Below, in pieces: positions 1,075 to 4,272 of a DNA stretch of 64,000 bases. The stretch lies in the NCBI RefSeq assembly GCF_041468085.1, contig NZ_CP121014.1:62001-126000 (forward strand), written 5' to 3'. The stretch comes from Tistrella mobilis (GTDB lineage: Bacteria > Pseudomonadota > Alphaproteobacteria > Tistrellales > Tistrellaceae). Position 1 is the first letter of the stretch; each line of letters opens with the position of its first letter. A model generated the notes under the pieces. That model did no database searches. It was not told where the DNA came from and saw only the letters and a list, made by a program, of their open reading frames with translations. The translations under genes and the position numbers were made by a program.

Positions 1075-1122
1075 TACCCCCTGCCGGTTGAACGGCGGAT
1101 GCCTGCCGGGGAAGAACCGGTT

Positions 1123-1157
1123 ACCATGAGGTGATCTTCGGGTGATCACCTCATGGT
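1123..1157. promoter_or_regulatory. Perfect 14-bp inverted repeat abutting the RBS of the KAP NTPase gene
   Basis: The arm ACCATGAGGTGATC (1123-1136) is repeated as its exact reverse complement at 1144-1157, with the 7-nt loop TTCGGGT. No T-run follows, so this is not a classical terminator. The right arm ends directly against the Shine-Dalgarno GGAGG at 1158-1162 that serves the ATG at 1167. It could be an operator for a dimeric repressor or an RNA hairpin controlling translation of the NTPase. Which one applies is inference. Confidence 0.6.
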
Positions 1158-1166
1158 GGAGGCGGC

Positions 1167-4109
1167 ATGGACGACCCTGGCGAATCGGTGGCACCAGCCC
1201 CGTCCATGACCGTTGGGGCGCTTCTGAAGGCGCGCAGGTTCCGGTTGTCGAAGAACCTGAGAGCGCATCTGGACGGCATGGCACCGTCGCCGTTCGAAAC
1301 GCAACAGCCGGTCGCCGATATCGCCAGCTATCTGTCCAGCGCCGCCCGGCACGACAATGACTGGCTGGCGGCCATCGCCGGCGCGGGGAACAGGATCGTT
1401 GCCTGGCTGACGGGGGTCGCCGCGAGACCCGTCGCGATCTCCGATCTGTCACTTTCTGCCGGCCTGCTCGCGGCCCTCGAAGATGCCGTCGACATTCGCA
1501 GGAGGACGGGCGGAAAAGACGCCTATATCGGCGCCCGCCATCTGCTGATGGCGATTCTGACGGCGCCCGACAAGGATGTGCAGGCCGAACTCGGGCGGAT
1601 ACTGCAGCTGACCAGGGGGGCGGACGATCTCGCCGTCTGGGTGACACGCTGTGCCGAACGGGTTTTTGAGGCGAGGGAGCCGGGCGAGGACCTCCGGATA
1701 TGGATGGGGTTGTTGTCTGCCCGTGGCCATCCTGCAGCTGCAGAACGCCTGCAAGCCCTGGTGCGGGACGAGGCCCTCGGCAATGAGCTGCCTCCGGAGG
1801 CGTCAGAGCCTGAAATCTCCGAGACGGCCGATATGCTGCCGGACGCAGTGCCGGCTGGCGCCATCCCACGGGACGCCGTGCCCCGCCTCGCCAACGACGA
1901 CGGCTGGGGTCTCGCCGCCGAGCATCGCGTGGGAGACGACGCCGTCGCTGCGGCGCTCGCGCGGCTGGCAGCCTCAGAGAGTTTCACCCCGCCGCTGGCG
2001 GTCGGCGTCTTCGGGGCCTGGGGGTCGGGCAAGAGCCATTTCCTGCGCCAGGTCCATGATCGGGTGACGGAGCTGACCGCAGCGAAACCTGCCGGCTTTC
2101 ATCACCGGATCGCCCAGATCCGGTTCAATGCCTGGCATTATGTCGACACCGATCTCTGGGCCAGCCTCGCCGGCTGCATCTTCGAAGACCTGGCGGCGCA
2201 GGGGCGGGGCTCTGCGGAAGGCACGCAGCCGGATCTCCTCGGGCGGCTGGCCACTGCGCGCCGGCTGACCCTGGAGGCGGCCGGCGCACTGGTGGTGCAC
2301 CGTCAGGCCGTCGACGAGGCAGAGAGGGCGCGGATCGCGGCTGAAGAAGGGCTTCGCGCGGAACGGCAGCAGCTGCGTCAGGCGCTCCGGCCGCAGATCA
2401 TCGCCGCCGCCGAAGGCATCCGCAGGGCGGCCTCGGGCAAGGAGGTCGGCGCTGCGGTCGAGAGCGCTTTCGGCGAGCCGCTTGAGACCATCGTCGATCG
2501 CTGGCAGGAACCGCGTCAGGCATTTCAGGAGCTGAAGGAAACCCTGCCGCCGATGGCGGGCCTGCTGCGCCAGCTGGCCCGGCCGGACCAGTGGCTGGTG
2601 CTGGGGGGCGCGCTCGCGATCGCCTTCCTGCTGCCGATCGTGCTGGGCGCCGCCGCAGACTGGCTGCGGCCGCTGCATGACGGGCTGCTGGTGGCGGTGG
2701 TGGGGGTGACGACGGTCGCGGCCCGGGCCTCCCGCGCCATGCGGCAGGTGCTGACCGCGCGTGACGCGCTCACCAGAGCGGCCGAGCGCTTCCGTGCCGG
2801 ATGGGAGGTCTCGCTTCCGCCGACGGCCGGGGATGCGGCTGCGGAAGCCGCGCGGCGCCGGGTCGCCGAGGCAGAAACCCGGGTGGCGCAGGCCACGGAA
2901 GACCTGCACCTGGCACTGCGCCAGCAGGCCGAGGCGGCGCGTGCCTTCCATGACCAGACGGCGGCCGCGCGGCTCAGGGCCTTTCTCCACGACAAGGCGG
3001 CGGCCGATGGGGTCTATCGCAGCCGCCAGGGCCTGATCGGCACCATCCGCCGCGACTTCGCCGACCTCTCGGCCCTGATGAACGTGCAGGCAAGCGCTGA
3101 AGAGCTGCGGCGCTTCGCGGAAGAAAAACAGGCCTATGAGGCCCGGCTCCGGGCCTTCCTCGACGGGCCGGGGCAACGTCTCACCGAGGATGAGAAGGCC
3201 AGTCTGCAACCGGATCTCGGCCGCTCCCCCGATCCGGCCTTCACCCGCATCATCCTCTATATCGACGACCTGGACCGCTGCCCGCCCGAAAAGGTGGTCG
3301 ACGTGCTCCAGGCGGTGCATCTGCTGCTCGCCTTCTCGCTCTTCGTGGTGATCGTGGCGGTGGATCAGCGCTGGCTGAAGGGCGCCCTGGTCAAGGTCTA
3401 TCCCGATCTGCTGGACCGCGAGGGGCAGGCGGCGGCGATCGACTATCTGGAGAAGATCTTCCAGCTGCCGGTCTGGCCGGTGCAGGTGAGGGGGGACGCG
3501 GCCTCGGACTTCGTGCGCCGCAGGCTTGCGGCGGATCTGGAACGGCCGGCGTCGGTGCCGATGGCGGCCATTCCGCCCGCACCGCCCGCACCATCCGTCA
3601 ATGACGGGCTCCGTTCCGATCCGGATGCTCACGATGACGACGATGGGTCGGCTCCGGTCGATGACCTTCCGGAGGATGACATTTCCCTGGCGCCGCTGAC
3701 CCTCACCCGGGCTGAAATCGACTGGCTGGCCGAGATCGCGCCGCTGGCGGCAAGCTCGCCCCGCCGGCTGTTGCGGCTGGTGAACAGCTACCGGCTGGTG
3801 CGGGCCAGTCTGGATGCCGCAGATGCCGGCAGGGTGGCGGCGGGCGGCTATCGGCCGCTCGCTGCCGCTCTGGCGCTGGCGGCGGCTGATCCGGTCGGTT
3901 TTACGGCTGTGCCGGTCCTGGTGCGGCAGGCGCCTGATGGTCAGGCCCTGCTGGAGGCCGTCGGGGCCCGGGCCCCGGACCTCGTCTTTCCGCTCAAAAC
4001 CATGCTGGAGCGGCACCCGGATGTCTGGTCCGGTCTGGCTGTCTGGATGACCGCTGCGCAACGTTTCAGCTTCGGAGGCTTTACCGGCGAACGCGCTTCG
4101 GACGCCTGA
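1167..4109 (+). CDS. KAP-family P-loop NTPase with Clp-N-like N-terminus and membrane insert
   Basis: This 980-residue protein has the hallmarks of KAP (Kidins220/PifA) STAND-like NTPases. Walker A is GAWGSGKS (residues 283-290, Lys289). Walker B is IILYIDDLDRCPPEKV near 695-710, with the family's DDLDRC signature. Two hydrophobic segments (about 475-499 and 506-525) lie between the Walker motifs, as in membrane-anchored KAP proteins, flanked by Ala/Glu/Arg-rich coiled-coil stretches (about 370-420 and 545-600). Upstream, around residues 95-175, YIGARHLLMAIL resembles the Clp N-domain repeat. PifA, a KAP protein, mediates phage exclusion, so a defence role is possible but unproven. The start is supported by GGAGG four bases upstream. 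The gene stands alone on its strand. Confidence 0.85.
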   Translation: MDDPGESVAPAPSMTVGALLKARRFRLSKNLRAHLDGMAPSPFETQQPVADIASYLSSAARHDNDWLAAIAGAGNRIVAWLTGVAARPVAISDLSLSAGLLAALEDAVDIRRRTGGKDAYIGARHLLMAILTAPDKDVQAELGRILQLTRGADDLAVWVTRCAERVFEAREPGEDLRIWMGLLSARGHPAAAERLQALVRDEALGNELPPEASEPEISETADMLPDAVPAGAIPRDAVPRLANDDGWGLAAEHRVGDDAVAAALARLAASESFTPPLAVGVFGAWGSGKSHFLRQVHDRVTELTAAKPAGFHHRIAQIRFNAWHYVDTDLWASLAGCIFEDLAAQGRGSAEGTQPDLLGRLATARRLTLEAAGALVVHRQAVDEAERARIAAEEGLRAERQQLRQALRPQIIAAAEGIRRAASGKEVGAAVESAFGEPLETIVDRWQEPRQAFQELKETLPPMAGLLRQLARPDQWLVLGGALAIAFLLPIVLGAAADWLRPLHDGLLVAVVGVTTVAARASRAMRQVLTARDALTRAAERFRAGWEVSLPPTAGDAAAEAARRRVAEAETRVAQATEDLHLALRQQAEAARAFHDQTAAARLRAFLHDKAAADGVYRSRQGLIGTIRRDFADLSALMNVQASAEELRRFAEEKQAYEARLRAFLDGPGQRLTEDEKASLQPDLGRSPDPAFTRIILYIDDLDRCPPEKVVDVLQAVHLLLAFSLFVVIVAVDQRWLKGALVKVYPDLLDREGQAAAIDYLEKIFQLPVWPVQVRGDAASDFVRRRLAADLERPASVPMAAIPPAPPAPSVNDGLRSDPDAHDDDDGSAPVDDLPEDDISLAPLTLTRAEIDWLAEIAPLAASSPRRLLRLVNSYRLVRASLDAADAGRVAAGGYRPLAAALALAAADPVGFTAVPVLVRQAPDGQALLEAVGARAPDLVFPLKTMLERHPDVWSGLAVWMTAAQRFSFGGFTGERASDA

Positions 4110-4272
4110 ACCGCGGCAGCCACTCCCTCAACCTCTGCGTCATGCGTGCGAATGCTGTCCTGCCCGGCTGGTAGCATGACTTTTCGTCATGCAATGCCCA
4201 ATATTCATGCGTTGTGATGCCGGCTGGATGATCCCATACTCGACCTACAAATAAAAATGAAGGTCAGGAGAC

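What the first reader, a model, noticed from the sequence alone, without database searches (positions are those of the whole stretch)
1167..4109. KAP NTPase with a Clp-N-like N-terminal domain and membrane insert
The Walker motifs and DDLDRC place it in the KAP family, but the N-terminal ~175 residues carry YIGARHLLMAIL, similar to the Clp N-domain that recruits protein substrates. Combined with coiled coils and two hydrophobic segments this could be a membrane-bound sensor or defence NTPase. PifA shows that KAP proteins can exclude phage.
Basis: partly seen in the sequence, partly recalled or inferred. Interest (0 to 1): 0.5.

Follow-up and report, generated by a model that had tools for sequence, protein, structure and literature searches.

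The report
Membrane KAP NTPase with Clp-N-like domain
The gene encodes an intact membrane-anchored KAP-family molecular switch whose front end resembles the protein-docking domain of Clp chaperones; related switches carry swappable immune-type domains in that slot, so it is probably a single-gene conflict or defence protein, but nobody has tested it.

Summary
Window 1167-4109 (+) encodes a 980-aa KAP NTPase (Pfam E 1.3e-25) with intact Walker A and B and a hydrophobic insert between them. Its relatives' N-terminal profile matches ClpA/ClpB N-domains (hhalign E 1.6e-7; best of 200 column shuffles 0.0025). Leave-one-out profiles find the domain in 38 of 81 family N-termini at E<1e-3 (reversed control best 0.086). 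A full-length AlphaFold2 model matches ClpC N-domains (Foldseek probability 0.99, target TM-score 0.68-0.70, although E is 0.4-0.8). The NTPase core resembles RdrA (RADAR), Orc/Cdc6 and resistosome NTPases. Relatives carry TIR, trypsin, SLOG, EAD11, EVE or GcrA domains in the N-terminal slot. The gene is accessory: both same-genus genomes lack it and hold another module at the site. No conserved partner gene was found, and defence genes were not visibly commoner beside it than a few genes away. Most likely it is a single-gene, Tmn-like membrane conflict NTPase with a Clp-N-like docking or switch domain. Function is untested. I call it a new variant of a known kind.

The parts
1167..4109 (+). 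KAP-family NTPase gene, 980 aa
   Evidence: ORF list and translation; Pfam KAP_NTPase E 1.3e-25; keeps 77 of 81 columns that are at least 90% conserved in 34 relatives
1212..1676 (+). Clp-N-like double-repeat domain, residues about 16-170
   Evidence: Helix pattern in the full-length model; Foldseek to ClpC N-domains 2y1q and 4p15, probability 0.99, TMt 0.68 and 0.70. The first repeat (residues 1-95) has no sequence support of its own (hhalign E 0.14, reversed control 0.18)
1449..1676 (+). Second, best-supported Clp-N-like repeat, residues 95-170
   Evidence: hhalign E 1.6e-7 against the ClpA/ClpB profile; reversed control 0.17; best of 200 column shuffles 0.0025; leave-one-out HMM E 5e-13 for the window protein
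1524..1559 (+). YIGARHLLMAIL, signature of the repeat, with R where Clp domains have E
   Evidence: R in 19 of 26 aligned family members; E in 27 of 31 and 24 of 31 of the two Clp repeats
1782..1871 (+). Flexible linker between the Clp-N-like part and the NTPase, residues 206-235
   Evidence: pLDDT about 40-66 over residues 201-240; under 50 at 207-230
2013..2036 (+). Walker A, GAWGSGKS, residues 283-290
   Evidence: columns 283, 285, 286, 288 and 289 invariant in A4
2250..2429 (+). Long helix before the membrane insert, residues 362-421
   Evidence: AlphaFold2 model
2586..2741 (+). Hydrophobic hairpin inside the NTPase domain, residues about 474-525
   Evidence: Hydropathy peaks 2.49 at 477 and 1.47 at 507; 79 of 79 family members with both Walker motifs have at least one such segment
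2829..2954 (+). Long helix after the membrane insert, residues 555-596
   Evidence: AlphaFold2 model
3246..3281 (+). Walker B, RIILYIDDLDRC, residues 694-705
3441..3464 (+). Conserved DYLEKIFQ motif, residues 759-766
   Evidence: Seven of eight columns (759, 760, 762-766) invariant among 35 members, 761 nearly so
3756..3785 (+). SPRRLLRLVN motif in the C-terminal helical part, residues 864-873
   Evidence: P865, R866, R870 and N873 invariant in A4; a role as arginine sensor is inferred
1123..1157 (.). Perfect 14-bp inverted repeat just upstream of the start codon, perhaps an operator or an insulating hairpin
   Evidence: The 13-bp-arm pattern occurs once in the genome, the backwards control none; longest such stem upstream of 79 family genes and longer than any of 237 control stretches
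1084..4164 (.). Strain-variable segment holding only this gene
   Evidence: Flanks match both same-genus genomes at 94-97% DNA identity up to 1069-1083 and from 4165 on; nothing between matches there

Best explanation
It is a single-gene, membrane-anchored conflict (most likely anti-phage) NTPase of the KAP type, working like Tmn and like STAND immune receptors. Shown: an intact KAP P-loop core with a hydrophobic hairpin inside it, a Clp-N-like domain joined to it by a flexible linker, and relatives that swap the N-terminal part. Inferred: at rest the protein is held off at the inner membrane; a trigger (a foreign protein or peptide docked on the Clp-N-like domain, or a signal read by the NTPase or membrane part) lets ATP drive assembly of a ring, as in RdrA, apoptosomes and resistosomes; the assembly then acts either through the membrane hairpin or through an effector protein that docks on the Clp-N-like domain. 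Relatives carry the effector in the same chain (TIR, trypsin) or may dock it through EAD11. The Clp-N-like domain is thus the docking and switch module, as the N-domain of ClpC is for its own ATPase, and not a sign of a chaperone.
For: KAP core with 77 of 81 conserved columns kept. Hydrophobic insert in 79 of 79 members with both Walker motifs. Clp-N-like domain. NTPase model closest to RdrA Z 16.7, Orc/Cdc6 about 15, NRC4 resistosome 13.7, BrxC 13.2, CED-4 about 12. N-terminal slot in relatives: EVE in 8 of 77 N-termini, GcrA 2, trypsin 2, TIR 1, EAD11 1, kinase 1, SLOG 1. L058 is TIR then Clp-N-like then KAP. In L067 the KAP protein carries EAD11 and the two small genes upstream are also EAD11. 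The Clp-N label needs 16 changes on the tree (shuffled mean 26.2), at least 7 forced by starred branches. Accessory, strain-variable site. Tmn, a KAP NTPase with two transmembrane segments, blocks phages, mechanism unexplored (PMC11846954, passages). KAP ATPases replace STAND NTPases in some predicted conflict systems (PMC8195603 section 7). ClpC is activated by ligands bound to its N-domain (PMC12583610, passages).
Against: No functional test exists. No recognised effector domain in the window protein and no effector gene next to it. Defence-gene density near relatives is not visibly above that a few genes away, and many neighbours are housekeeping genes. The module that replaces it in a sister genome has no Pfam match and is not a recognised defence system. 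The Clp likeness of the window protein alone is weak, and Foldseek E-values are not significant (0.38 and 0.80 for the full model; no E<=0.001 hit for the N-terminal model).
Confidence: 0.55

Rival explanations
1. A membrane-linked protein quality-control ATPase: the Clp-N-like domain captures unfolded or tagged proteins and the KAP NTPase remodels them, as ClpB or ClpC would.
For: Clp-N domains bind substrates and adaptors in ClpB, ClpC and Hsp104 (PMC12583610 passages); predicted fold of the whole ClpC N-domain.
Against: The core is KAP/Orc-like rather than a Clp ATPase; the domain was not detected at E<1e-3 in 43 of 81 relatives, some of which carry trypsin or EAD11 instead; sporadic presence, unlike quality-control genes; the pocket glutamate is arginine in 19 of 26.
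Confidence: 0.15
2. A PifA-like exclusion protein of a former mobile element, acting at the membrane without any docking role for the N-terminus.
For: PADLOC PifA matches the KAP core, E 1.9e-12; the gene sits on a variable segment of a 740-kb replicon.
Against: The best PifA stretch covers only residues 692-768; the 3-kb segment holds this gene alone, no mobility gene; 14 of 72,556 plasmid records match, none over 80% of the query, and 0 of 50,697 phage records.
Confidence: 0.14
3. A signalling or scaffolding ATPase serving its neighbours, the ABC exporter upstream or the amino-acid uptake operon downstream.
For: It lies in the same direction between them, 92 bp after the exporter gene.
Against: Both neighbours are kept at 94-97% DNA identity in sister genomes that lack the KAP gene; relatives have quite different neighbours; a perfect inverted repeat separates it from the exporter gene.
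Confidence: 0.08
4. The N-terminus is a generic helical bundle and not a relative of Clp-N; the RHLLMAIL likeness is convergence.
For: No Pfam hit at E<=10; Foldseek E-values 0.38-0.80; top VIA Z for the N-terminal model only 6.0, within the range of helical background.
Against: Two-way profile matches with clean reversed and shuffled controls; one family member, L083, has an unmistakable Pfam Clp_N, E 6.3e-31; 26 of the 50 rows shown by VIA name Clp or Hsp104.
Confidence: 0.08

Closest known systems
Tmn (transmembrane KAP NTPase anti-phage system of E. coli)
   Same: A KAP-family NTPase with two transmembrane segments that protects against phages (PMC11846954, passages)
   Different: Tmn's sequence could not be fetched by name here, so its N-terminus was not compared. 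Its mechanism is described as unexplored.
KAP and STAND NTPases of predicted conflict systems with N-terminal EAD or effector domains (PMC8195603, section 7)
   Same: N-terminal slot with TIR, trypsin, kinase or EAD; NTPase in the middle; KAP named as an alternative to STAND
   Different: Those described there carry a C-terminal FGS lectin-like part; Pfam found none in the window protein. A Clp-N-like domain in the slot is not named in the passages and section that I read.
ClpN repeats in FtsH ternary conflict systems (PMC7159879, passage)
   Same: Clp N-domain used in a predicted conflict system
   Different: There fused to a vWA domain in rare variants, not to a KAP NTPase
ClpA/ClpB/ClpC N-terminal domain (Pfam Clp_N)
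   Same: Fold and repeat pattern of the N-terminal part
   Different: R for E at the start of the EHLL helix in most members; first repeat barely recognisable; attached to a KAP rather than a Clp ATPase
PifA and QatA
   Same: KAP P-loop core
   Different: Match limited to the core; NCBI's QatA cut-off of 600 bits is far from reached (77.9 bits); window neighbours are transporter genes
RdrA of RADAR
   Same: Best solved match to the NTPase core, Z 16.7 over 342 residues, rmsd 6.0
   Different: 10% sequence identity; RADAR also has RdrB (title)

Membership tests
KAP NTPase | Match to the curated KAP_NTPase model above its cut-off | tested here: met
   90.7 bits against 20
KAP NTPase | Walker A and DDLDR-type Walker B | tested here: met
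   Residues 283-290 and 700-704, conserved in 35 members
[quoted passage not shown] paper not held) | tested here: met
   Segments at 477 and 507 between the Walker motifs; 79 of 79 relatives with both motifs have at least one. Membrane insertion itself is untested
Clp N-terminal domain | Pfam Clp_N above its cut-off | tested here: not met
   No hit at E<=10 for the window protein; met by relative L083. So it is called Clp-N-like, not a Clp_N member
Clp N-terminal domain | Homology by profile-profile comparison | tested here: met
   hhalign E 1.6e-7, probability 93.9; reversed 0.17; best of 200 shuffles 0.0025
Clp N-terminal domain | Predicted fold covering a whole Clp N-domain | tested here: met
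   TMt 0.68 and 0.70 to 2y1q and 4p15, probability 0.99, but E 0.38 and 0.80
Clp N-terminal domain | Two recognisable repeats | tested here: inconclusive
   Second repeat clear; residues 1-95 alone give E 0.14, as poor as reversed, yet the full model shows a helix pattern fitting a first repeat
Tmn | Sequence relationship to the experimentally tested E. coli Tmn | not testable with these tools
   The protein could not be fetched by name; no model of that name appeared among PADLOC matches
Tmn | Protection against phages | not testable with these tools
   Needs an experiment
QatABCD | QatA above NCBIfam cut-off | tested here: not met
   77.9 bits against 600
PifA | Match along the protein, not only the NTPase core | tested here: not met
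   Best stretch 692-768 of 980
STAND-type modular conflict NTPases | Exchangeable N-terminal effector or EAD domain | tested here: met
   For the family; the window protein itself carries only the Clp-N-like domain

The most novel reading that the evidence does not exclude
A widespread class of membrane-inserted bacterial immune receptors has recruited the Clp chaperone N-domain as an exchangeable adaptor, doing the job that death-type or EAD domains do elsewhere. The change from glutamate to arginine at its ligand pocket means that it reads a different, probably acidic, foreign or effector peptide. The docking event, relayed through a KAP NTPase ring, opens or perturbs the membrane.
Probability: 0.25. 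Interest if true: 0.72.

Novelty: new variant of a known kind. Interest (0 to 1): 0.45.

Why it matters
Tmn and PifA show that membrane KAP NTPases stop phages, but how they sense and act is open. A recurrent, swappable Clp-N-like domain gives a concrete handle: a domain of known ligand-binding fold that can be deleted, mutated at one residue, or used as bait to find the trigger or the effector. It would also tie the chaperone-adaptor world to bacterial immunity, beyond the rare ClpN-vWA fusions already reported.

Tried and rejected
Pfam, NCBIfam and PADLOC on the whole protein gave the KAP core only; phmmer against the PDB gave nothing at E<=10. Foldseek with the separate N-terminal model (mean pLDDT 71.9, first 90 residues poor) had no hit at E<=0.001 and ranked designed helical repeats first, with the ClpV N-domain at E 3.5. 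VIA on that model put ClpC first, but at Z 6.0, which is within helical background. I rest the fold claim on the full-length model and the sequence profiles.

Neighbour survey: I looked for a conserved partner among 668 neighbour ORFs (crude gene calls that include spurious antisense ORFs) and found none in more than 4 loci. Defence-island enrichment: PADLOC hits at E<=1e-15 in A5 (132 of 213 eligible neighbours at positions 1-2) include HsdS, GajB and MADS proteins; A6 (140 of 181 at positions 4-5) includes PsyrA, GajA, HsdS, PD-T4-6 and MADS proteins. The tool counts families, not loci, and lists only 25, so no rate was computed and no enrichment is claimed.

The survey set is biased. The collection scan used patterns from this protein and kept the best 80 of 152. 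Of 84 N-terminal stretches listed, 77 went into A1; L007, L009, L029 (overlapping or cut copies), L052 (62 aa), L064, L103 and L107 (near-copies) were dropped. The 81 N-termini are 78 of the 80 loci, plus L005, L008 and the window's own copy L004; L110 and L113 gave no Walker A in the ORF. L008 and L106 are identical over the core, so the 81 are 80 distinct at most. The tree holds 78 of the 81 (L055, L071, L088 dropped). For the 26 members used in training, one search is leave-one-out but near relatives stay in (L036 for L070), so those E-values flatter; among the 55 members never used, 13 (with that identical pair) pass E<1e-3.

Rejected: QatA membership (cut-off missed by far) and a role tied to the neighbouring transporters (they persist without it).
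Full report
WHAT IS THERE. The ORF at 1167-4109 (+) is real and intact: 980 aa, ATG start. Pfam gives KAP_NTPase at E 1.3e-25, 90.7 bits against a curated cut-off of 20. Walker A is at residues 283-290, Walker B/DDLDRC ends at 705. The protein keeps 77 of the 81 columns that are at least 90% conserved in 34 relatives. A hydrophobic hairpin lies between the two Walker motifs (peaks 2.49 and 1.47), and 79 of 79 family members with both motifs have at least one such segment (two further members, split ORFs, had no Walker B). Such an insert is the feature named in the title of the founding KAP paper (seen only in a reference list).

IS THE N-TERMINUS CLP-N? Pfam says nothing, and a profile of 31 ClpA/ClpB N-domains, two from the own genome and 29 from other loci, finds the window protein only at E 0.014. 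The same profile finds relatives at 3.4e-27 (L083), 1.3e-8, 2.1e-6, 3.7e-6, 6.3e-5 (L034) and 7e-5 (L070); the best of the 81 reversed sequences is 0.48. A seed of the four closest N-termini (window, L034, L036, L070) finds ClpA/ClpB second repeats (5.3e-6, 6.7e-5) and other family members (7.7e-6 for L079), against 0.0049 for the best reversed sequence. Profile-profile comparison of residues 95-205 (26 members) with the Clp profile gives probability 93.9, E 1.6e-7; reversed 0.17; best of 200 column shuffles 0.0025. With leave-one-out for the training members, 38 of 81 N-termini pass E<1e-3, reversed best 0.086; the domain usually ends about 65-100 residues before Walker A. Residues 1-95 show no sequence likeness of their own.

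PREDICTED STRUCTURE. The full-length model (35 sequences, mean pLDDT 77.2, pTM 0.56) has two groups of helices in residues 16-170. Foldseek lists ClpC N-domains 2y1q and 4p15 with probability 0.99 and TM-scores of 0.68 and 0.70 on the target's length, though E is 0.38 and 0.80. The separate N-terminal model was poorer: no Foldseek hit at E<=0.001, and VIA ranked ClpC first at only Z 6.0 (91 residues, rmsd 3.6), with Clp or Hsp104 named in 26 of the 50 rows shown. Alone this would be inconclusive; with the profiles it is convincing. The core's best solved match is RdrA of RADAR (Z 16.7, 342 residues, rmsd 6.0), then Orc/Cdc6 (about 15), the NRC4 resistosome (13.7), BrxC (13.2) and CED-4 (about 12).

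THE FAMILY. A scan of 84,980 species genomes kept the best 80 of 152 relatives. The NTPase half is conserved, the N-terminal half is not: mean column identity 8% in 77 N-termini. Pfam in those 77 finds EVE in 8, Clp_N, GcrA and trypsin in 2 each, and kinase, EAD11, TIR, SLOG and papain-type peptidase in 1 each, at E<=0.1. Read singly: L058 has TIR (14-133) and, further on, the Clp-N-like domain (325-393); L094 trypsin then SLOG; L083 true Clp_N then leucine-rich repeats; L067 two EAD11 stretches; L101 and L109 GcrA, L062 and L044 EVE above cut-off, L040, L095 and L077 EVE below cut-off. In L067 the two small genes just upstream are also EAD11 (E 4.1e-23 and 6.2e-14), much like the multiple-copy arrangement that PMC8195603 describes for effector-associated domains (section 7 read). 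On a tree of 78 cores the Clp-N label changes 16 times (shuffled mean 26.2), at least 7 forced by starred branches: clustered, yet repeatedly gained or lost. The window row is on a long branch (1.85), so its exact place is unsure.

SETTING. Two same-genus genomes lack the gene. 24 of 387 genomes of the class have any match, most of them to the KAP core alone. The same genes flank the site in all three genomes, but the DNA from 1084 to 4164 is unique to this strain among the three. In its place G001 has a 4.2-kb module of secreted or membrane proteins, one trypsin-like by eye, without Pfam matches at E<=0.01; G002 has the same module plus a large insert. So the site is variable, but not a recognised defence island. 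Relatives have no widely shared neighbour. No phage record matches; 14 of 72,556 plasmid records do, none over 80% of the query.

HOW IT MOST LIKELY WORKS. Shown: intact NTPase motifs, hydrophobic hairpin, Clp-N-like domain on a flexible linker, exchangeable N-terminal slot, accessory gene. Inferred: a single-gene membrane conflict NTPase, Tmn-like, switched on by docking at the Clp-N-like domain or by a signal at the membrane, acting by ring assembly and either membrane damage or a docked effector. The analogy with ClpC is concrete: its N-domain holds the ATPase in a resting state and ligands that bind the N-domain release it (PMC12583610, passages). In most family members the glutamate of the EHLL helix is arginine (19 of 26; E in 27 of 31 and 24 of 31 in Clp repeats). 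In ClpC, glutamates 32 and 106 belong to the phosphoarginine pockets (same passages); that they are the E of EHLL is recalled, not taken from a call. If so, this domain would not read phosphoarginine.

COMPARISON AND NOVELTY. KAP NTPases in immunity are known (Tmn, PMC11846954 passages; PifA's exclusion of phage is recalled; KAP in place of STAND in PMC8195603; KAP among hypermutated sensors in PMC10907252, passage). ClpN repeats in a conflict system are known as rare vWA fusions (PMC7159879, passage). The recurrent KAP plus Clp-N-like architecture did not come up in ten paper searches, of which 20, 24, 25, 68 and 97 bear on it most; the library lacks most subscription papers, including Gao 2020 and Aravind 2004. 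I rate it a new variant of a known kind.

Noticed in passing
window 1123-1157: A perfect 14-bp inverted repeat ends about ten bases before the start codon; its 13-bp-arm core occurs once in the 6.3-Mb genome. It may be an operator or a hairpin that insulates the gene from the exporter upstream.
   Followed up: partly
L156 2776-7042 (G001) and L157/L158 (G002): The module that occupies the same site in sister genomes: secreted or membrane proteins of 236, 293, 266 and 241 aa and a 404-aa protein that looks trypsin-like by eye, none with a Pfam match at E<=0.01. Unknown module alternating with a KAP NTPase.
   Followed up: partly
L048 8942-12103 and L079 9026-12154: In two Acidobacteriota the KAP gene sits, in opposite orientation, between pyrH-like and EF-Ts genes; the two proteins are sisters (support 100). 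Stable residence inside a core operon is odd for a defence gene.
   Followed up: no
L067 2008-2698: Two small EAD11 genes directly upstream of an EAD11-KAP gene in a Saprospiraceae genome, a candidate EAD-KAP system.
   Followed up: partly
L101 and L109 N-termini: GcrA-type DNA-binding domain fused in front of Clp-N-like and KAP domains in two Sphingomonas, hinting at a DNA-linked version.
   Followed up: no
window 3561-3683: A low-confidence acidic, proline-rich insert (residues 799-839) between the NTPase core and the C-terminal helices.
   Followed up: no
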